Below, one piece after another: positions 13,460 through 22,863 of a stretch of DNA of 64,000 nt. Under the pieces are notes generated by a model. The model did no database searches. It was not told the DNA's origin and was given only the letters and a program-made list of their open reading frames with translations. Location: the NCBI RefSeq assembly GCF_002532045.1, contig NZ_NWTG01000004.1, forward strand, positions 248,001 to 312,000. Direction: 5' to 3'. The translations under genes and the position numbers were made by a program. The number at the start of each line of letters is the position of its first letter. Position 1 is the stretch's first letter. The stretch is from Bradyrhizobium sp. C9. Lineage in GTDB: Bacteria; Pseudomonadota; Alphaproteobacteria; Rhizobiales; Xanthobacteraceae.

Positions 13460-14908
13460 TCAAAATGGTATCTCCTCTCGGCTAGCGTTTCCTCCAAACA
13501 GCATCCTCGGTCCGTTGAAGTCAATTTCCTTCCACTTGCTGCCGGTGCCGCTGCGGTTCTTGAAGACGGCAAAGGCCGCCTTCTCCTTCCAAATCTCCCA
13601 TTCGCGAAGCCAGCGATCGCGCTGCTCCCGCCCTTTCGGGTTCTCTTCGCTGGCAGGCTCCGGCTCGTTGTCGCGGAGCCAAATCTTTGGAATGCTCAGG
13701 CCAATGATGATGTCGCTGTTTTCGACAATCAGGCCGCCGCCGTAGATGTCGCCGCTACCGAACTTCCAACTCGGCGCGCGCTGTCCCTCACGGGTCAACT
13801 GCGCGAGTTGCCAGACGACGCCGTCGAGCTCCTTGGCGAGATCTTTCGTATAGGCCGACGCGTATTCGACCGTCCGCACGACGTTCCAATGCTCCTGCTC
13901 CGGCTCGACCAGCTTCAGATGGTCGATGCAGAACTGCTTCACGCCATACCGCCGCTTCGCCTTCCGGAACTCGTTGCCGATCTGCTTGATCGTCATCCGG
14001 CTGCGGTCTTGGACCCAGACCTTGATCGACTCGAGCTGTTCCTTCGCTCGCCGGATGTCGAGGAATTCCTTCTGGTTGAAGTCGCCGCTGATCTGCTTCT
14101 TGACCGAGACGCCGGACAGCGACGCGATGTCGCGATATGCGATCTGCTCCGCGGACATTTCGAGGCTCAGCGAAAAGCCCGGGAAAATGCTCGTCTCGTC
14201 CAACGATGGTCCCGCATTGTCGCGTAGGATCTGCGCCATCAAGGCCGATTTGCCGTGGCCCGATGGTGCCGCCAGAGTGACGGTCGTGCCGCCAACCATA
14301 GGCCCGAGAACCTGGTCCAACTCCGGGATCTTGGTGAGCACGCCGACGGCCCGCTTACCCTGATGCTCGTAGGCCTCACCCGCCTTGGCCATCGCACTGC
14401 CGGCAGCCTCACCGAGCGCAACGGCATGCCGCACCCGGTCGTGGTCGTCGACGATGCGGAGCATGTCGTCGAGTTCCTGGCGCGTTTGATCGAACGTCTT
14501 GTCGGGCGCCGTGGCGATCTTCCCGAGTTGTATGCGGGCGCGTTCCCGCCATGCCAAAATGACGTCGTCGACGAAGTCGAGCGCGCTGCTGACGTCCGCC
14601 GCCTTCTCGATCAGGATCTGAAGGACGGCCTCTGTATCGCCGACTCCCTCGAACTCGGTCGGGAGCTTGGCCTCGAGCAGCGACAGGGTCGGGCCGGCTC
14701 CATTGAGGCAGCAGTCCTCGACCGCGGCGAAGATCAGACGGTGATGCGGCACCGTGAACTGGTCCGCCGACACGCGATCCGAGACAGCCCAGAAGGTCTC
14801 GGCCGACCCCAAAAGTTTTCCGATGATGGCTTCCTCAGCGCGAACATTTTGGGTCGGCCTATTGGGCGCGGCTCCTCGCGATGGACCAAGTGTTCCGACT
14901 TTAGCCAT
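13460..14908 (-). CDS. DnaB-like replicative helicase
   Basis: 482 residues with the DnaB layout. The N-terminal helical domain includes AEEAIIGKLLGS and DQFTVPHHRLIFAAVEDC. A linker follows, then the RecA-like ATPase with Walker A APSGHGKS (residues 214-221), FSLEMS-like FSLSLEMSAEQIAYRD, and Walker B-like QFCIDHLKLVEP. The ending SGTGSKWKEIDFNGPRMLFG matches DnaB C-termini. It would unwind the element's DNA at its own fork. The ATG overlaps the methylase stop (TGATG). Last gene of a minus-strand operon that also encodes primase, clamp and resolvase. Confidence 0.9.
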   Translation of the reverse strand: MAKVGTLGPSRGAAPNRPTQNVRAEEAIIGKLLGSAETFWAVSDRVSADQFTVPHHRLIFAAVEDCCLNGAGPTLSLLEAKLPTEFEGVGDTEAVLQILIEKAADVSSALDFVDDVILAWRERARIQLGKIATAPDKTFDQTRQELDDMLRIVDDHDRVRHAVALGEAAGSAMAKAGEAYEHQGKRAVGVLTKIPELDQVLGPMVGGTTVTLAAPSGHGKSALMAQILRDNAGPSLDETSIFPGFSLSLEMSAEQIAYRDIASLSGVSVKKQISGDFNQKEFLDIRRAKEQLESIKVWVQDRSRMTIKQIGNEFRKAKRRYGVKQFCIDHLKLVEPEQEHWNVVRTVEYASAYTKDLAKELDGVVWQLAQLTREGQRAPSWKFGSGDIYGGGLIVENSDIIIGLSIPKIWLRDNEPEPASEENPKGREQRDRWLREWEIWKEKAAFAVFKNRSGTGSKWKEIDFNGPRMLFGGNASREEIPF

Positions 14909-15654
14909 CAGGCCGGCACCTCAAACTGAAATTGATCCTGTGAAAGGCGTCGCTGCATCACCAAGACCATGTCCTGGTCTGCCTCAATCAGGATGCTGGA
15001 ACAGCCGTACCGCGCAGCGGCAATGCCCGTTGTTCCGCTGCCAGCAAAGCAGTCCAACACAACGCCGGCCGGTGGACATGAGTAAAGAAGCAGCGGATCG
15101 ACGATCCCGAGGGGCTTCTGGGTAGCGTGCACCGCGCGCCGATGCTCGGATCGCACGTAAATCACGCTACGCATGAGACGTGGGCCTCCGTCAACCGTTC
15201 GATACTCCATCTCTTCGATGTCGCCCAAGTGTATCGTACGGCCACGGCGCCTCACCGTCCGTGCGATTGCGTCGTTGGTCACCTGAGGAAGCTTGTAGAC
15301 CTGATCCCATGCGGCATCGTCACGGTAGAACTGGACCGCGGACTCGTGGACACGACGAAACCGATCGGCATGGAAACCGCTTCCGTTCTGCTTTTCCCAG
15401 ACGACGTCCTGAGCTGGGCGCCAACCTGCAAATTCGGGCGCGCGATCGAGGAACATCTTGAGCGTTCCGAACACCCACATGCTACCGGTTTTTTTGAGCA
15501 CTCGCCGTACACTGGCGGGCCAGCCAACCGGCCAGCGGTCCCATATTAGCTTCGTTGATCCATAGGGCGGATCGGTCAAGATCAGGTCAACCGACTCATC
15601 CTCGAGGCGGTTCACAACGTCACGGCAATCGCCGCAGATCACCTGCACGCTCAT
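14908..15654 (-). CDS. DNA amino-methyltransferase (DPPY type)
   Basis: 248 residues, near the normal length for a small beta-class N6-adenine/N4-cytosine methylase. Catalytic motif IV is LILTDPPYG at about residues 24-32. The AdoMet motif I is near the C-terminus, VLDCFAGSGTTGIAA. A QKPLGIVDPLLLY block (motif X) stands before it. No partner endonuclease is adjacent, so it is an orphan methylase, likely anti-restriction or regulatory. ATGA overlap with the next methylase gene upstream. Confidence 0.9.
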   Translation of the reverse strand: MSVQVICGDCRDVVNRLEDESVDLILTDPPYGSTKLIWDRWPVGWPASVRRVLKKTGSMWVFGTLKMFLDRAPEFAGWRPAQDVVWEKQNGSGFHADRFRRVHESAVQFYRDDAAWDQVYKLPQVTNDAIARTVRRRGRTIHLGDIEEMEYRTVDGGPRLMRSVIYVRSEHRRAVHATQKPLGIVDPLLLYSCPPAGVVLDCFAGSGTTGIAAARYGCSSILIEADQDMVLVMQRRLSQDQFQFEVPA

Positions 15655-16973
15655 GCCGGCACCGCCTCGAGCTCGACCGAGGTTAGCATCGGATGGCTCG
15701 CGCTGATCCGTTTGGCGGCCATCTCGGCGTAATCAGCGTTCAACTCGATCAGGATGGCGTCACGCTGCAGCCTGTCCGCAACCAGTCCGGTGGTGCCGGC
15801 GCCGGCAAACGGATCGAGCACGGTACCGCCGGGCGGCACGCCGGCCAGGATGCAAACCGCGGCGACCTCGGGCGGCATCACCGCGAAATGGTTCAACCAG
15901 TCCTCGTGCGAGCCACATTCGCAATATCGGAGCGTTACCTTGCGCCCGTCGCGTTCGATCTTTTCCGCGCGGAGTCGCCCAACTTCGGCACTCGGGTAGA
16001 ACCGACGGCACCCCGTACAGAACTCGTCATTGAAGCCGCCCGGCGCGACCCACCAGACCGACCGAAGAGCCGCGCCGTTGGCGCGCTGTTCAGCCACCGA
16101 CATGCCGTCCCAGCGATCGTTGAAGCCCGCATGGCGCCGCCCGTGCCCTCGTTGGCGATCGCGCTTGCGCGCGCCGGCGTGCGGTGGCTGCCCGTCAGGC
16201 GCGTAGCCGCCACCGCTGACAACAAGGCCACCATCCTCGGCGCCGAGGCGGTCGCGCATGGCACGCGCTAGCCTGGTCACCGACTCCGGCGCTGCCGGCA
16301 GCCTGACGTCCTCATAGCCGTGGTAATAGGTCTCCGACTTCGTGAGGTGGAAGACGTATTCATGAGCCGAGGTCGACCGGTCTCGCGTGCTCTCCGGCAT
16401 CCCGTTGGGCTTGGCCCAGATGTTGTCCTTGCGCAGCCACCAACCGTCCGCACGCAGCGCGAAGGCCAGCATCCACGGGATGCCGATCAGGTCCTTCTGC
16501 TTCAAGCCGCCGGGCGCCGGCTCCCATGCTCGACCGATCGCGCCGTCACCCTGGGCTTTCGCTTGGAGGCCGGCCGGCACACGGCTGCCGCGCTCGGTCT
16601 GCGCGGCTGTCCTCGAGCTCGCACCGATCTCCCAGTTCTGCCGGACCACCATCGACGCTTCCTGCGACTGCAGCGTGCCGAGCAACGTCGATGATGCGGC
16701 GGCCGGATTGCCGCCCCGACCGGATCCTGCATAGCAATCGCCGATGTTGATCCAGAGCGAGCCGTCATCCCGCAGAACGCGCCGTATCTCCCGGAACAGG
16801 TCGACGAGCTCCGCGATATAGGCCTCGGGCGAGTTCTCGAGCCCGATCTGGCCGGCCATCTTGTAATCGCGCAGGCGGAAGTACGGCGGCGAGCAGACGC
16901 AGGCATGCACCGAGTTGGAAGGCAGAAGCCGGACAACCGCCCGGCAATCACCATTGAGAATTCGAACCGTCAA
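15651..16973 (-). CDS. DNA amino-methyltransferase (SPPY type)
   Basis: 440 residues. Motif IV is CVCSPPYFRLRDY at about 26-38, the SPPY form typical of N4-cytosine or some N6-adenine enzymes. Motif I is VLDPFAGAGTTGLVA near the C-terminus. In between is a long recognition region with a zinc-ribbon-like part (CTGC, then CEC) at about 325-360. The start is a TTG at 16973 whose last bases form the upstream stop (TTGA), the same coupling as the clamp gene. It forms a tandem pair with the DPPY methylase and shares its operon. Confidence 0.88.
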   Translation of the reverse strand: MTVRILNGDCRAVVRLLPSNSVHACVCSPPYFRLRDYKMAGQIGLENSPEAYIAELVDLFREIRRVLRDDGSLWINIGDCYAGSGRGGNPAAASSTLLGTLQSQEASMVVRQNWEIGASSRTAAQTERGSRVPAGLQAKAQGDGAIGRAWEPAPGGLKQKDLIGIPWMLAFALRADGWWLRKDNIWAKPNGMPESTRDRSTSAHEYVFHLTKSETYYHGYEDVRLPAAPESVTRLARAMRDRLGAEDGGLVVSGGGYAPDGQPPHAGARKRDRQRGHGRRHAGFNDRWDGMSVAEQRANGAALRSVWWVAPGGFNDEFCTGCRRFYPSAEVGRLRAEKIERDGRKVTLRYCECGSHEDWLNHFAVMPPEVAAVCILAGVPPGGTVLDPFAGAGTTGLVADRLQRDAILIELNADYAEMAAKRISASHPMLTSVELEAVPA

Positions 16974-18061: not shown

Positions 18062-18300
18062 GCCAAGCCTGCAGCCGCCTCGATAGCTTGTCGCTTCAAG
18101 TTCGCCCAAAGCCGGTTACAAGCCGTTCCGTCGTTCTCATGGTGATACCGGCGCCATGCGCGCTTGCGCCGCCCATAGACGCGGCGCCGATCGACGGGCA
18201 GCGCGCGCCAATGGTCCCCGCAAATCCATTCCGTCGGAGGAGCGAACCGACCTGTGGTGCGCCGGCAGAACGGCACGCAGCATCGCACCCGATCTGTCAC
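18058..18300 (-). CDS. Small Cys/His-rich protein, 80 aa
   Basis: GTG start coupled to the upstream stop (GTGA at 18297-18300). CCVPFCRR, WICGDHWRALP and a basic GRRKRAWRRYHHEND stretch suggest a zinc-binding, nucleic-acid-contacting protein. It lies immediately before the primase gene and overlaps it by ATGA, so it may be a priming accessory. That link is positional only. Confidence 0.6.
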   Translation of the reverse strand: MTDRVRCCVPFCRRTTGRFAPPTEWICGDHWRALPVDRRRVYGRRKRAWRRYHHENDGTACNRLWANLKRQAIEAAAGLA

Positions 18301-19106
18301 AGCATGCTCTCCTGCTTCGGCTCAGGCGCAGACGTAAGTGGCGGCGCCAGCGGATCGGCCGGCTTCCACGCCTCATAGTCGGCAGCTATCTCATCCCAGA
18401 CACGCGGATGCTGCGCCTTGAAGTTCGGGAAATCCACGGCGGCGCGATAGACGCCCCGATCGAGGATGAGCCAGCCAGCGCCCGACGGCAGCCACCGGCG
18501 ATGATCGATGTTGACGTGCTTAAAATCAGCCCGGACGAGGAAGCCGCGCTTCTGCAGAATGATCGCGATCTTGATGGCGGCGATCTTCCAACTCGTCAGT
18601 TGGACCGGTGACGGCGCGCCAGCGTCGACATCGGGCACGTAGTCGGGAAGGATATGCCGCTTCGCCGGTGCCCACTCGTGCCATTCGTCGTCATTGGTGC
18701 CGTGCCTATCCCCCGGCAATCCCGGTTCGAAGGCCTTGGGCCTCCATCCATAATAGGACTTCTGAGACTCGACTTGTTCCTCAGACCGCACGTAGATGAT
18801 GGTGAGGCCGATGTACTTGCAGATGCGGCCAAAGCCTCCTTGTGAATCTGCCGGCACTAGCACGGCGCGGCAATCCGGCCCGGGATGATCGGCGTAGAAC
18901 GATCCGTATTCCTCAAGCGCCTGGCTGATGACTTCGGTGTTCAGTCGAAGCTTCGCCTCTACGCCAATCTGGAATCCGTCCGCCTTGCGCACCAGCAGGA
19001 TGTCCCAGCCGCAGGTCTCCGGGTAAGCGGTCCATCCCTCGGGTAGCGAGGAGATGAACCGCTTGCACAGCTCTACTTCCGAAGTGAACGGCTTCGGCTT
19101 CGGCAT
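18297..19106 (-). CDS. Possible PD-(D/E)xK-fold protein next to the C5 methylase
   Basis: 269 residues; the start at 19106 overlaps the methylase stop as TGATG. Residues 10-75 read LCKRFISSLPEGWTAYPET, then WDILLVRKADGFQIGVEAKL. This gives D followed 12 residues later by the E-x-K of a PD-(D/E)xK nuclease core, and then LRLNTEVISQALEEYGSFYA as the supporting helix. The remainder has a winged-helix-like part (SWKIAAIKIAIILQKRGFLV). It could be a restriction-type nuclease, a resolvase relative, or an inactive homolog. The call rests on a short motif, so confidence is limited. Confidence 0.6.
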   Translation of the reverse strand: MPKPKPFTSEVELCKRFISSLPEGWTAYPETCGWDILLVRKADGFQIGVEAKLRLNTEVISQALEEYGSFYADHPGPDCRAVLVPADSQGGFGRICKYIGLTIIYVRSEEQVESQKSYYGWRPKAFEPGLPGDRHGTNDDEWHEWAPAKRHILPDYVPDVDAGAPSPVQLTSWKIAAIKIAIILQKRGFLVRADFKHVNIDHRRWLPSGAGWLILDRGVYRAAVDFPNFKAQHPRVWDEIAADYEAWKPADPLAPPLTSAPEPKQESML

Positions 19107-21520
19107 CAGGCCTCCCGCGACGCCATGAGCGCGACAGCAACCGGTCTGACCCAAATAGGGGTGCTCCCCATCATGAATGTTTGGCCTGACCAAGCGGCGA
19201 GCAGCGTGGTGCCGCAGACGTCAGCGATTGCCTGCGCCGCGGGTGGTGGGACCATGTTGCCGATGCGCTCGCGCCACGCGGAGTCTGAGGCACCATCGAG
19301 CACCAGCAGATTGTTCATGCGCTCGACGCGCGCGGCCCATTCCGGGTCGAGCGGATCGAGCGACAGCACAGACCGCTCCTCTTCATTATCGAGGTCGACG
19401 AGGCCCTGCAGCGCAGCGAGCTCGAGCGTCGTGAACGGCCGGTGCCATGTCCCGTCCAAAGCACGGATGACACAGACCAATTTGTCACTGGCAGCCGGAA
19501 GCTTGTCCCAAGGTGCGGGGTCGGACGCAGGCCCCTCGCCGGTCTCCCGTGGGTCTGCAACAGACCACGGGCCGTTGTTGTTCTTTGCGTGCGCCGGCAC
19601 CGCGCCGCTGTGCTCATCCCACGGCACAACGCCGTAGTGGCCGCCCGTAAGGTACGCATCGCGGCTGGTATCCGACAGCGCCTCGGGTCGCGGATCTGCC
19701 ACCGCAAAGGCACCGTTGGTCGGGTGCGTCTCGCCGGCAACGACGCCAGCGTTCTCGTCCCATCCTTTCACGCCGAGCGCGGAATTGCGCGCGCCTTCGA
19801 TCAGCCTCGGGTCTGCAACCGAAAGCGCGCCGCCTGCCGGATGCGTCGAGGACGTCACGGTGCCCCCATGCTGCTCCCAGCCTGTGACCTTCAGCACATG
19901 GTGGTGAGTGCTGGCGCCAAAGCCCGGCCGCGGATCCGCAACGGCGCCGGCGCCCGAGGCTACCTGTTGGGAGCCGGTCACGGGCCGAGCATGCTCGTTC
20001 CAGCCCGTCACGCGCTCCTTCGAACTCGACGCGCCCGGATGCCAGTTGAGGTGACGCGGGTCGGCAACGGCGAAGGCGCCGTTCCCCGTGGTCGAGGCGC
20101 CGATGACAGCGCCCGTCGCCTCATCGAACCCGGTGACGCGGTACTTGGTCTGCTTGTAGTCATCGCGCTGCGCCGGACGCGGATCGGCGACGGCCAAGCC
20201 ACCTCCAGCACCACCAGGTCCGGCGACCGCCGGCGACGTCTCCGGCCATGACACAATACGGAACGCGGAGTTGAAGACCTTTCGCTCCAGCCGAGGGTCT
20301 GCGACGGCATAGCGGCCGGTCCCGACTGAGACGTCCCCCTTCACGACCGACGACGGTTGGTCCCAGTGCCCGACGCCCAGTTGCACGCTCTTCTCGTGAC
20401 CGTCGACGCGCGGATCAGCCACCGATTGAGCGCTTGATCCCGGGCTCCGTTGGGTGGTGACAGCCGCCGCGGTGCCCTTCCAGTCGTTCACCCTCAGACC
20501 GTGGAAATCCTGGGCACGGATCTCGCGCGGGTCGGCGACGCTGAATGCGCCTGTCGTCGGGTTCGCCCGCCCCGTCACGGTGCCAGAGGTCTCGTCCCAG
20601 CGCCGAACACCGAGGACTCCCCGGTGCCACTCCTCATCCGGAACAATGCCGAAGTCGCGAAGATGGCCGTCCTGCACCGCAAGGTCATTCAGCGAACGCC
20701 AGTCCGCGCCGGCGCGAACGAACGCAAGCCGCACCCACGTCTTCCATTGCAGCGACGGCATCCGGTGCATTGGACCGCCTAGACCCGCGATGATGCCCGG
20801 GATCGGCAGTTTCTCGAGGATCTCGCCGACCCCGCGCAGCGGATGCTTGACCGGCTCGTAAAGGAACGTCGGGATCTTGGCGACATGGCGCGCGACTAAC
20901 AGAAAGCGCTTACGGCTCTGCCCGAGGTGCCCGATCTCGCCGCAGTCATGGGTCGTTTCCGCGACGGCGTAGCCGTATGATCGAAACAGCGCGATGATCT
21001 GGTCGAGGAGATGCCTGCCGCGCGTTGCGATGCGCGGCACGTTCTCAAAGACGTACAGTTCGACGGGATCGTCCTTGTGCGCCTCGAGAGTCAGCCAGAC
21101 GCCGCGAAGCGTCAGCCCATTCAGCGCCTGGTACTTCCGCGTGCCCGACATTTTCTCGGACAAGAGGCCTGAGAAGCCTTTGCAGGGGGCGGACAGGAAG
21201 ACGATGTGCGGATGCTGATTGCCGGCGGCTCGACGAATATCGTCTGGACCGCGCTCAACCCAGCCCGGGGGCGGCTCGTGCCCGTGGAAATCGCGATACT
21301 GCTCGCGCGAAAACAGATCCATGCACGATGCTTGAGCACCAGTCAGGTTCTCGAAGTCACGGCACGCCGCGGGGTCGCTGTCGATGCCGCCGATGCAGCG
21401 GAAGCGCGCGAAGAGGTTGCCGACTTTCGCACGCCCCTTGTTGAAGCCCTTGGCACCGCCGCCAAGCCCGCAGAAAAGATGAAGGTGATTGATATCGACC
21501 TGGAGTGGCTGAATCTGCAT
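19106..21520 (-). CDS. C5-cytosine DNA methyltransferase with nine VADPR repeats
   Basis: 804 residues, about twice the usual length. Motifs in order: I, HLFCGLGGGAKGF (13-25); IV, SAPCKGFSG (110-118) with the catalytic cysteine; VI, FENV (158-161); VIII, QSRKR (201-205). In place of a normal target-recognition region there are nine repeats of 38-47 residues (about 300-658), each ending VADPR and most with W-(D/E)-x5-8-V-x-G. Motif IX-X follows, PFTTLELAALQGLVD (695-709) and RIGNMVPPPAAQAIA (752-766). The repeat unit resembles the segment just before motif IX of ordinary phage C5 methylases, expanded in tandem. Probably active; specificity may be multiple or altered. It forms a coupled string with genes on both sides. 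Confidence 0.93.
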   Translation of the reverse strand: MQIQPLQVDINHLHLFCGLGGGAKGFNKGRAKVGNLFARFRCIGGIDSDPAACRDFENLTGAQASCMDLFSREQYRDFHGHEPPPGWVERGPDDIRRAAGNQHPHIVFLSAPCKGFSGLLSEKMSGTRKYQALNGLTLRGVWLTLEAHKDDPVELYVFENVPRIATRGRHLLDQIIALFRSYGYAVAETTHDCGEIGHLGQSRKRFLLVARHVAKIPTFLYEPVKHPLRGVGEILEKLPIPGIIAGLGGPMHRMPSLQWKTWVRLAFVRAGADWRSLNDLAVQDGHLRDFGIVPDEEWHRGVLGVRRWDETSGTVTGRANPTTGAFSVADPREIRAQDFHGLRVNDWKGTAAAVTTQRSPGSSAQSVADPRVDGHEKSVQLGVGHWDQPSSVVKGDVSVGTGRYAVADPRLERKVFNSAFRIVSWPETSPAVAGPGGAGGGLAVADPRPAQRDDYKQTKYRVTGFDEATGAVIGASTTGNGAFAVADPRHLNWHPGASSSKERVTGWNEHARPVTGSQQVASGAGAVADPRPGFGASTHHHVLKVTGWEQHGGTVTSSTHPAGGALSVADPRLIEGARNSALGVKGWDENAGVVAGETHPTNGAFAVADPRPEALSDTSRDAYLTGGHYGVVPWDEHSGAVPAHAKNNNGPWSVADPRETGEGPASDPAPWDKLPAASDKLVCVIRALDGTWHRPFTTLELAALQGLVDLDNEEERSVLSLDPLDPEWAARVERMNNLLVLDGASDSAWRERIGNMVPPPAAQAIADVCGTTLLAAWSGQTFMMGSTPIWVRPVAVALMASREA
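19547..20623 (-). repeat. Coding repeat array in the C5 methylase
   Basis: Nine diverged copies of a 114-141-base unit, each ending in codons for VADPR. The DNA copies differ strongly while the protein pattern is kept, so the array is old and under selection rather than a recent slippage product. Confidence 0.85.
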
Positions 21521-21732: not shown

Positions 21733-22863
21733 CTACACCCTCATCGGCATGAGGACGTAGAGCGAGTCCGCGTCGCTGCCCTTGAACAGCGTCGGCGAGC
21801 CCGGATCGGCGAGGTTGATTTCGAGCGTGTCACCCTGCACCTGGGCAACAACTTCGTGCAGGTACCGGCTATTGAAACCGATCTCCATGCTGTCCGAAGC
21901 ATACTCGGCATCGAGTTCGTCGACCGCGTTGCCGGCGTCCGGATTGCTGACCGTTAGTGTCACCTTCCCGCCAGCGAGAGACACCTTCACGGCGCGCCCG
22001 CGCTCGCTGGAGATCGTCGCGACCCGGTCTGCCGCGGCCGAGAACTCGCTGCGCGGCACCTTCAGAACGCGATCGTTGTTCTGTGGAATGACGCGATCGT
22101 AGTCCGGAAAGGTCCCGTCGATCAGCTTCGAAGTCAGAGTGAGATCACCTGCGGTGAAGCGAATCTTGCCCTGGCTGAGCTCGATCTGGACTTCCTGGTC
22201 GGCGCCGCCGAATAGTTTGCCCACCTCGGCGACCGTCTTCCGGGGGACGATAATGCCCGGCATTCCCGTGGCTCCCTCGGGCAAATCGAGATCGAAGCGC
22301 GCCAAGCGGTGACCATCGGTTGCTACCCCCCGCAGCGTGTTCCGGTTGCCCTCGCGCCGAGTGTGCAAGTAGATGCCGTTGAGGTAGTACCGGGTCTCTT
22401 CCGTGGAGATTGCAAACTCGACCCGCTGGATCAATCGGTGGAGATCGGTCCCCTTCACCGAAAATGAATGCGTCAGGTCACCGGCCTTGACGTCGGGGAA
22501 GTCGGAAGGCGGTAGCGTCTGCAGCGTCGAACGAAACCGTCCCGCCCTCACAGTCACGATGTTCTTCGCATCATCCTGTTCCAACGTGATCTGAGATCCC
22601 GCCGGCACCTTGCGCACGATCTCATTGAGCAGACCGGCGGGCACAGTGGTCGCTCCCTTCGCTGCGACCTGGGCCGGCACCCTATCGATCACCTCAAGGT
22701 CCAGATCGGTCGCCTTCAGCAGGACGGCATCCTGCTCGACTTCAATCAGCACGTTGCTCAGGATCGGAATGGTGTTGCGCCTCTCCACAACACGCGTGAC
22801 CTTGGCCAATACTTTGACGAGCGCGGCTTGCTCGACGACGGCCTTGAAGGATGTCTGGGTCAA
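21733..22863 (-). CDS. dnaN: DNA polymerase III sliding clamp (beta subunit)
   Basis: 376 residues, the normal length for a bacterial beta clamp. The three-domain pattern is visible: LVKVLAKVTRVVERRNTIPI, then LSNVLIEVEQDAVLLKATDL in domain I; GSQITLEQDDAKNIVTVRAG at the end of domain I; ATDGHRLARFDLDLP in domain II; and SRYLHEVVAQVQGDTLEINL and DADSLYVLMPMRV at the end. The start is a TTG (22863-22861) behind AAAGGAG, and its last bases form the resolvase stop (TTGA). The frame is open further upstream but would overlap the resolvase gene. A second clamp beside the host one suggests a self-sufficient fork. Confidence 0.95.
   Translation of the reverse strand: MTQTSFKAVVEQAALVKVLAKVTRVVERRNTIPILSNVLIEVEQDAVLLKATDLDLEVIDRVPAQVAAKGATTVPAGLLNEIVRKVPAGSQITLEQDDAKNIVTVRAGRFRSTLQTLPPSDFPDVKAGDLTHSFSVKGTDLHRLIQRVEFAISTEETRYYLNGIYLHTRREGNRNTLRGVATDGHRLARFDLDLPEGATGMPGIIVPRKTVAEVGKLFGGADQEVQIELSQGKIRFTAGDLTLTSKLIDGTFPDYDRVIPQNNDRVLKVPRSEFSAAADRVATISSERGRAVKVSLAGGKVTLTVSNPDAGNAVDELDAEYASDSMEIGFNSRYLHEVVAQVQGDTLEINLADPGSPTLFKGSDADSLYVLMPMRV

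What the first reader, a model, noticed from the sequence alone, without database searches (positions are those of the whole stretch)
19547..20623. Nine VADPR repeats in the recognition region of a C5 methyltransferase
The region between motif VIII and motif IX, where the target-recognition domain lies, is built of nine units of 38-47 residues ending VADPR, most with a W-(D/E)...V-x-G core. The unit resembles the single segment that ordinary phage C5 enzymes carry before motif IX. This may be a modular, multi-specific recognition array, like the multispecific phage methylases of Bacillus but with many more modules, or a structural scaffold.
Basis: partly seen in the sequence, partly recalled or inferred. 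Interest (0 to 1): 0.82.

Follow-up and report, generated by a model that had tools for sequence, protein, structure and literature searches.

The report
Swappable multi-target DNA methylase array
A gene in a bacterial virus lodged in a Bradyrhizobium-like genome encodes a DNA-cytosine methylase with nine different plug-in segments where ordinary enzymes have one target-reading segment, and relatives in other viruses carry other mixtures of such segments, so one enzyme probably marks many different DNA sites and shields the virus from many host restriction enzymes.

Summary
The ORF at window 19106-21520 (-), 804 aa, is a C5-cytosine methyltransferase with nine units, 38-47 aa apart, each ending VADPR, between motifs VIII and IX. 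(1) The unit profile's best match in ordinary C5 enzymes is the pre-motif-IX 'TL' segment, which reads DNA in M.HhaI and M.HaeIII. (2) 154 non-redundant relatives have 2-10 units in 91 distinct orders; 932 units fall into 59 types. (3) Interior types almost never repeat within a protein (2 observed, 41 expected). (4) Near-identical enzyme bodies carry different units, changed as whole blocks. (5) Differences between types lie mainly in two blocks around the T/A-V core and are enriched at published DNA-contact spacings. It works like the multispecific methylases of Bacillus SPbeta-group phages, but is much larger, sits (where hosts are named) mostly in Proteobacteria, and shows no detectable module similarity to them. 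AlphaFold2 failed on the array, so the unit's fold is unproven. Verdict: a new, much expanded variant of a known kind.

The parts
19106..21520 (-). Array-bearing C5-cytosine DNA methyltransferase, 804 aa
   Evidence: ORF; PF00145 1.8e-9 over residues 12-214; PHROG 116 'DNA methyltransferase' 7.7e-48 and PHROG 32684 1.2e-102; predicted fold matches DNMT1 Z 25.3, M.HaeIII Z 23.5, M.HhaI Z 23.0
21455..21475 (-). Motif I FCGLGGG (AdoMet site)
   Evidence: sequence
21167..21199 (-). Motif IV FLSAPCKGFSG with catalytic Cys113 (PCK where PCQ is usual; 'usual' is recalled)
   Evidence: P112 C113 K114 invariant in 51 of 51 aligned rows
21035..21046 (-). Motif VI ENVP
   Evidence: E159 N160 V161 P162 invariant in 51 of 51 rows
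20906..20920 (-). Motif VIII QSRKR
   Evidence: Q201 S202 R203 R205 invariant in 51 of 51 rows
20651..20878 (-). Conserved stretch of about 76 residues (215-290) between motif VIII and the array (contains QWKTWVRLAF...DWRSLN); its limits are my own choice
   Evidence: W259 T261 W262 R264 L265 A266 D273 W274 R275 invariant in 51 of 51 rows
20525..20641 (-). Unit 1, type I (loop TGRANPTTGAF)
   Evidence: unit HMM and typing
20408..20518 (-). Unit 2, type Y (loop TTQRSPGSSAQ)
20291..20404 (-). Unit 3, type N (loop KGDVSVGTGRY)
20177..20281 (-). Unit 4, type J (loop AGPGGAGGGL)
20054..20167 (-). Unit 5, type B (loop IGASTTGNGAF); type B is present in 114 of 154 proteins
19928..20044 (-). Unit 6, type G (loop TGSQQVASGAG)
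19805..19918 (-). Unit 7, type U (loop TSSTHPAGGAL)
19688..19795 (-). Unit 8, type K (loop AGETHPTNGAF)
19547..19663 (-). Unit 9, type A (GGHYGV...NNNGPW); type A is the last unit in 147 of 154 proteins, so probably a constant, possibly structural, module
19406..19450 (-). Motif IX TWHRPFTTLELAALQ
   Evidence: H693 R694 P695 T697 T698 Q705 invariant in 51 of 51 rows
19247..19264 (-). Motif X IGNMVP
   Evidence: I753 G754 N755 V757 P758 invariant in 51 of 51 rows

Best explanation
It is a prophage-encoded C5-cytosine DNA methyltransferase whose target-recognition region has become an array of alternative, cassette-like TL modules. Shown: a C5 catalytic core; nine different modules, alike by profile to the single TL (recognition-loop) segment of ordinary C5 enzymes; a family in which module number, order and content vary by whole modules around a conserved core. 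Inferred: each module presents its own pair of DNA-contacting loops (N-terminal and C-terminal of the T/A-V core) to the one active site, so the enzyme methylates several different short sites, roughly one per variable module (eight in the window enzyme, plus an almost invariant terminal module that may be structural or a ninth reader). Inferred biology: the phage thereby protects its DNA against many host restriction systems with one gene, and gains or swaps modules by recombination to follow the restriction repertoire of its hosts.
For: Homology: hhalign of 181 unit rows against a profile of 23 ordinary C5 proteins, written on five of them in turn, gives the pre-motif-IX segment as the only real alignment each time (scores 22.9-23.8, P 6e-4 to 1.2e-3; the five are not independent), against a maximum of 16.2 in 100 column-shuffled controls (run on the L136 template). 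A single-profile search of 27 C5 proteins agrees: the three positive-scoring hits (L159 7.7, L157 4.0, L155 2.3 bits) all fall there, with the best reversed-sequence score at -2.3. Variation: 2-10 units and 91 distinct architectures in 154 non-redundant proteins. Non-redundancy: 2 interior duplicates in 91 architectures against 41 expected (minimum 26 of 2000 shuffles), and 26.5 expected (minimum 13) when each slot is shuffled separately; 0 of 724 within-protein interior unit pairs reach 60% identity against 3168 of 74354 between-protein pairs. Exchange: 11 of 63 pairs with bodies at least 97% identical differ in module content; in L188/L189 one unit is replaced (DNA at most 0.60 identical to any segment of the other) while the other segments stay 0.81-0.96. 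Each of the window's nine units is closer to a unit in a distant relative (0.68-0.92) than to any unit of its own protein (at most 0.53). Loop pattern: between-type information is high over most of unit columns 2-12 and 24-34 and low over most of 13-23 (column 14 is an exception), and is enriched at the columns that correspond to the published N-TL/C-TL DNA contacts (2.13 against 1.54 bits; 1.6% of random sets reach it; spacing from PMC2413257, sections 3 and 6 read). [quoted passage not shown]
Against: I found no methylation data for any member in what I read. AlphaFold2 gave pLDDT below 50 over the array in both jobs, so it is not shown that a unit folds as a TRD lobe or can reach the active site. 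The unit departs from the published TL consensus: Thr at the TL position in only 385 of 932 units, no R/K two residues after the aromatic (0 of 932), Gly mostly instead of Pro before T (Pro in 50 of 931), Asp-Pro instead of His-Pro (His 0 of 932); the consensus register score (4.03 of 8) does not exceed the best of 200 column shuffles (4.10; mean 2.57). There is no significant profile similarity to the four SPbeta-group enzymes used. Unit order is strongly conserved (1103 of 1160 ordered co-occurrences consistent, over 115 type pairs; no chance level computed), which free plug-ins would not need. hhalign probabilities are low (19-28%). Against the more distant L004, whose unit set differs in part, loop dN/dS is 0.22, no lower than in the catalytic part (0.21).
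Confidence: 0.74

Rival explanations
1. Structural scaffold or spacer: the units form a repetitive arm that stabilises the enzyme or holds it on DNA, and specificity comes from one segment only.
For: The last unit is type A in 147 of 154 proteins and type B is present in 114 of 154; order is conserved; no fold was obtained.
Against: Scaffold repeats usually expand by tandem duplication and look alike within a protein (general knowledge); here no within-protein interior pair reaches 60% identity (0 of 724) and each window unit's nearest relative is in another protein. Two blocks flanking the core are type-specific while most of the framework drifts.
Confidence: 0.08
2. Composite long-site reader: successive units read successive DNA steps, as in TAL effectors, giving one long recognition site.
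For: Tandem units of about 40 aa each with a short variable loop; conserved unit order.
Against: A per-step code needs few unit kinds used repeatedly; here 59 kinds occur and almost never twice in one protein (6 of 154 proteins have any repeated type). The closely related L026 and L008 differ by gain or loss of one whole unit.
Confidence: 0.06
3. Protein-binding or decoy array: each unit binds or mimics a host factor (for example a restriction subunit) and the enzyme is an anti-restriction platform rather than a multi-site methylase.
For: Type-specific loops and swapping would also suit protein partners; phage setting.
Against: Position between motifs VIII and IX, profile similarity to the DNA-reading TL segment and information enriched at DNA-contact spacings are not expected.
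Confidence: 0.05
4. Mostly relics: only one or two units (the constant A and the common B) are functional and the others are inactive passengers.
For: Silent TRDs are recalled to exist in Bacillus multispecific enzymes (from memory, no call). A and B are the most widespread units (147 and 114 of 154 proteins).
Against: Loop dN/dS is 0.05 and 0.04 against L003 and L006, not above the catalytic part (0.08 in both); loops are conserved within type.
Confidence: 0.07

Closest known systems
Multispecific C5-MTases of Bacillus SPbeta-group phages (M.SPRI, M.phi3TI/M.SPbetaI, M.H2I, M.rho11SI; enzyme names recalled)
   Same: Phage C5 enzyme; several target-recognition modules of similar size in tandem (tandem TRDs: PMC8936443 passage; sizes of 38-54 aa recalled from Trautner 1996, which is not held here) between motifs VIII and IX; module content differs between related phages (SPbeta, SPR and SPbetaL3 sequences).
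   Different: 2-10 units instead of the few in SPbeta-group enzymes; 59 unit types; a fixed VADPR unit end and an almost invariant last unit; named hosts mostly Proteobacteria; no significant sequence similarity of the modules.
M.HhaI / M.HaeIII, monospecific C5-MTases
   Different: One TL segment, one target.
M.BssHII / M.phiBssHII
   Same: Multispecific C5 enzyme (M.BssHII, reference title) and a relative (M.phiBssHII, reference title).
   Different: [quoted passage not shown] Not compared by sequence here.
HsdS subunits of Type I R-M systems
   Same: Domain exchange changes specificity (recalled).
   Different: Separate subunit, two large TRDs, adenine methylation (recalled); no homology tested.

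Membership tests
C5-cytosine DNA methyltransferase (PF00145) | Ordered motifs I, IV (PC), VI (ENV), VIII (QxRxR), IX, X | tested here: met
   All present; PC, ENV, QSRxR, and key motif IX and X residues invariant in 51 of 51 rows; PF00145 37.9 bits against cut-off 22. NCBIfam TIGR00675 only 28.5 bits, below its cut-off of 100.65
C5-cytosine DNA methyltransferase (PF00145) | C5-MTase fold | tested here: met
   Model m5a94fbf76883: DNMT1 Z 25.3, rmsd 2.8 over 263 residues; M.HaeIII Z 23.5 over 249; M.HhaI Z 23.0 over 269; the array itself is not modelled
C5-cytosine DNA methyltransferase (PF00145) | Transfers methyl to cytosine C5 in DNA | not testable with these tools
   No activity data
Multispecific phage C5-MTase (tandem TRDs) | Several TRD-like modules in tandem between motifs VIII and IX | tested here: met
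   Nine TL-like units in the window enzyme, 2-10 in relatives; similarity of the unit to the TL segment. That a module acts as a TRD is inferred
Multispecific phage C5-MTase (tandem TRDs) | Each module contains the TL motif (YFW)X(RK)X5P(STCA)PT(ILV)(TASV)X5-16H(PFYWL) | tested here: inconclusive
   Aromatic, small, ILV and final P positions fit in 609 of 929, 851 of 931, 931 of 932 and 881 of 881 units; RK and H are never met (0 of 932 each), T in 385 of 932; register score not above the best column shuffle
Multispecific phage C5-MTase (tandem TRDs) | Modules differ between related phages by gain, loss or exchange | tested here: met
   11 of 63 pairs with at least 97% identical bodies differ in content; whole-unit changes in all six pairs examined, which were picked because they differ
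Multispecific phage C5-MTase (tandem TRDs) | More than one DNA target methylated, one per module | not testable with these tools
   Needs a methylome
SPbeta-group enzymes as a sequence family | Sequence similarity of the modules to SPbeta-group modules | tested here: not met
   hhalign finds no significant alignment of the unit profile to SPbeta, SPR, SPbetaL3 or the Alicyclobacillus phage enzyme (best score 11.6, near motif IV; for Alicyclobacillus the best, score 10.9 and P 0.37, does fall on a TL-like stretch). The four-sequence profiles were thin
TAL-effector-like one-repeat-per-base reader | Few repeat kinds reused many times in one protein | tested here: not met
   59 types, almost never repeated within a protein
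Diversity-generating retroelement target | Reverse transcriptase and template repeat nearby | not tested
   No dedicated search; 10 neighbouring ORFs scanned in Pfam gave no reverse transcriptase

The most novel reading that the evidence does not exclude
The array is an open plug-in system: each of the 34 or more recurrent cassette types carries its own short-site specificity, independent of its neighbours, so that one 9-10 module enzyme methylates eight or more different sites. The phages draw on a shared cassette pool across mostly proteobacterial hosts to out-run host restriction, and the cassettes are a natural, transferable code for C5-methylation targets.
Probability: 0.5. Interest if true: 0.88.

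Novelty: new variant of a known kind. Interest (0 to 1): 0.75.

Why it matters
If true, one polypeptide would carry about twice as many DNA specificities as the best-known multispecific methylases (about five, recalled), and hundreds of phage relatives would form a ready-made combinatorial series: similar enzyme bodies with different, non-redundant modules. That makes the old question of how C5 enzymes read sequence directly testable, since module presence or absence can be correlated with methylated motifs across natural variants. It would also be a broad, evolvable anti-restriction device relevant to phage host range, and a source of interchangeable target-recognition parts for site-specific methylation.

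Tried and rejected
AlphaFold2 on the window protein (A2) and on a six-unit relative aligned with other six-unit proteins (L093, A5) both gave low confidence throughout the array (below 50 over residues 290-695 and 251-547), so no structural claim about the unit is made. An alignment that mixed N- and C-terminal fragments (A4) was discarded before use, because one search showed that fragment units had been misplaced.

Comparison of the unit with SPbeta-group enzymes by hhalign and by the unit HMM found nothing significant; the likeness to their modules is one of layout only. An hhalign against an eight-sequence group (L137-L139, L141-L145) also found nothing. phmmer of the window protein against PDB sequences gave no hit up to E 10. 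PADLOC gave Type II methyltransferase models and weak DruM-type cytosine methylase models for the methylase, and nothing for the downstream 270-aa ORF.

The published TL consensus was slid over the units. The expected register is best in the real data, but at least one of 200 column shuffles scored higher, so I do not count that test as support.

Reading targets from N-TL/C-TL trimers (PMC2413257) was considered and dropped without a systematic comparison: position 11 of the units is mostly hydrophobic, unlike the trimers that the paper gives, and the paper says the method fails for six-base sites. Tandem-duplication origin was rejected. TAL-like and scaffold readings are under rivals. The search of 385 class genomes found 4 with a match at E <= 0.001, of which only the own genome and one other have strong matches; in that sample the gene is rare.

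Literature: ten searches gave no description of this array in the listings that I saw. Several listings were capped (20 of 105, 20 of 43, 20 of 63 and 15 of 39 shown), and the library covers only openly licensed PMC papers. Four Trautner-group papers (PMC450048, PMC457134, PMC553513 and the EMBO J 1999 paper) are not held, so their content is recalled or known by title. The Marinobacter phage PS3 paper (PMC8424206, passages) calls the four-unit relative a C5 methylase and does not mention repeats in those passages.
Full report
WHAT IS THERE. The ORF at 19106-21520 (minus strand, 804 aa) carries the ordered motifs of a C5-cytosine methyltransferase: FCGLGGG (I), APCKGFSG (IV), FENVPR (VI), GQSRKRFLLVARH (VIII), TWHRPFTTLELAALQ (IX), GNMVPP (X) (motif numbering recalled). 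It matches PF00145 (37.9 bits, cut-off 22) and PHROG methyltransferase families. It falls below the cut-off of NCBIfam's dcm model (28.5 against 100.65). The predicted catalytic part superposes on DNMT1, M.HaeIII and M.HhaI (Z 25.3, 23.5, 23.0). Between motifs VIII and IX lie a conserved stretch of about 76 residues and then nine units, residues 294-658, window 19547-20641. Every unit ends in VADPR; spacing is 38-47 residues. Identity between units of the same protein is 27-53%. In DNA, the nine VADPR boxes use nine different codon strings, so this is not a recent tandem duplication.

CONTEXT. The window lies in an 8.4 Mb genome; the closest named relative of the gene is in Bradyrhizobium sp. 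Ai1a-2 (L022, 87%), so the genus is an inference. IMG/VR holds an identical protein on a viral contig (L002, 100%). Around the gene are a beta clamp, RuvC-like, primase and DnaB-like genes and two N4/N6 methyltransferase genes, and further off a terminase and an integrase: a prophage replication cluster.

VARIATION AMONG RELATIVES. From the window and the loci fetched up, leaving out the own-genome locus L001 and the comparison loci L134-L168, I extracted 176 proteins. Eleven loci failed my filter (L007, L030, L031, L032, L034, L039, L053, L081, L125, L219, L221) and were left out. After removal of duplicates 154 remained. Unit number: 2 (1 protein), 4 (13), 5 (30), 6 (73), 7 (16), 8 (13), 9 (6), 10 (2). 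The searches return the best matches to the window, to its family alignment or to a four-unit query, so these are not population frequencies. Clustering the 932 units at 50% identity gives 59 types, 34 with three or more members, and 91 distinct orders of types. The window is I-Y-N-J-B-G-U-K-A. The last unit is type A in 147 of 154, and type B is present in 114 of 154.

THE UNITS ARE CASSETTES. Three tests separate cassettes from ordinary repeats. First, non-redundancy: among 91 distinct architectures, interior units repeat a type 2 times against 41 expected by shuffling (minimum 26 of 2000), and against 26.5 expected (minimum 13) when shuffling keeps each slot and each array length. Counting every unit, 6 of 154 proteins hold any type twice. 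The result holds at all six clustering cut-offs tried, 0.4 to 0.65 (observed below the lowest of 500 shuffles each time), and without clustering: 0 of 724 within-protein interior pairs reach 60% identity, against 3168 of 74354 between proteins; at 50% the counts are 9 of 724 and 6005 of 74354. Second, kinship: each of the window's nine units is more like a unit in a protein with under 75% body identity (0.68-0.92) than like any unit of its own protein (at most 0.53). Third, exchange: of 63 pairs with catalytic bodies at least 97% identical, 11 differ in unit content. In L188/L189, type E is replaced by type Q while the other segments remain 0.81-0.96 identical in DNA; L026 has one additional unit (U) relative to L008. 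All six pairs that I examined, picked because they differ, show whole-unit changes; in three of them a unit of shared type has also drifted or been replaced (DNA identity 0.57-0.69). Against free mixing, the order of types is strongly conserved (1103 of 1160 co-occurrences over 115 type pairs; chance level not computed).

WHAT A UNIT IS. In all five cases the only real alignment is the segment just before motif IX, of the form W-D-x-P-x-x-T-(I/L)-T (scores 22.9-23.8, P 6e-4 to 1.2e-3), against at most 16.2 in 100 column shuffles on one template. The published account of this segment (PMC2413257, sections 3 and 6 read) calls it the TL motif of the target recognition domain, with DNA-contacting trimers spaced NNN-x10-TL-x3-CCC. 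M.HhaI's recognition loops are residues 233-240 and 252-258 (PMC4090504, passages), on either side of T250-L251; the HhaI letters 227-257 are visible. With the unit's T/A-V at columns 22-23, those trimers fall at columns 9-11 and 27-29. The information that distinguishes unit types (29 types with at least four distinct units) is high over most of columns 2-12 and 24-34 and lower over most of 13-23; column 27 is first and column 10 second, while column 14 is a high exception inside the framework and columns 25 and 32 are low inside the second block. The mean at the six published positions is 2.13 bits against 1.54 overall; 1.6% of random sets of six do as well. Because types were defined on columns 8-36, I repeated this with the second block alone: 1722 unit pairs alike there (over 90%) but with framework identity under 50% (mean 0.35) keep 61% identity in the first block, against a background of 16%. 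The two blocks travel together, as two recognition loops of one target-reading module would.

POINTS AGAINST. The unit is not a textbook TL motif: Thr is found in 385 of 932 units, the basic residue and the His of the consensus are never present, and the register test did not beat the best shuffle. The four SPbeta-group enzymes, which are the natural comparison, show no significant module similarity. Both AlphaFold2 jobs failed over the array. hhalign probabilities are low (19-28%), although P-values and the shuffle control are good. No enzyme activity is known to me for any member.

HOW IT MOST LIKELY WORKS. One catalytic core, one nearly constant terminal unit, and a set of alternative TL modules, each engaging a different short site. 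[quoted passage not shown]; also PMC8936443, passage). From memory, those enzymes have TRDs of 38-54 residues preceded by a conserved stretch of 71 residues; the present family has units spaced 38-47 residues in the window enzyme, preceded by a conserved stretch of about 76. I therefore say that it works like a multispecific phage methylase, at confidence 0.74, and file it as a new, much enlarged variant rather than as a member of the SPbeta sequence family, since sequence similarity of the modules was tested and not met. Purifying selection on the loops (dN/dS 0.05 and 0.04 against L003 and L006, which have the same unit order; catalytic part 0.08 in both) argues that the modules are in use. 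Against L005 and L004, whose unit sets differ in part so that some aligned units are not the same type, loop values are 0.08 and 0.22 (catalytic part 0.15 and 0.21).

NOVELTY AND INTEREST. Tandem target-recognition modules are known. Not seen in the searches I ran (some listings capped) are arrays of up to ten non-redundant modules, a shared pool of tens of module types, and this phage family as a natural combinatorial series. The relative in Marinobacter phage PS3 appears in the passages I saw only as a C5 methylase with homology to phage LKA5. The decisive experiment is simple: the methylome of the full and unit-deleted enzyme in laboratory E. coli.

Noticed in passing
18297-19109 (-): A 270-aa ORF directly downstream of the methylase, without Pfam match up to E 0.01 and in PHROG 15779, unknown function; by eye it could be a PD-(D/E)XK-like nuclease, not tested.
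   Followed up: partly
14908-15654 and 15651-16973 (-): Two adjacent N4/N6-type methyltransferase genes (PF01555) in the same cluster, so this prophage carries at least three DNA methyltransferases.
   Followed up: partly
21733-22818 (-): A DNA polymerase III beta-clamp gene with all three Pfam domains next to the methylase.
   Followed up: no
L038: Two-unit relative on a contig titled Kroppenstedtia, the smallest array found; its C-terminal end looks altered where motif X should be.
   Followed up: partly
L053 (Pseudomonas phage PA8): The relative's N-terminal part is not in the reading frame of its units; the record annotates hypothetical proteins there.
   Followed up: no
L029: A relative with seven units by the first HMM scan on a contig binned as Candidatus Gottesmanbacteria; possibly a mis-binned phage contig, not tested.
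   Followed up: no
All relatives, array end and order: Type A is last in 147 of 154 and unit order is conserved, which suggests position-dependent constraints inside the array that the plug-in model does not explain.
   Followed up: partly
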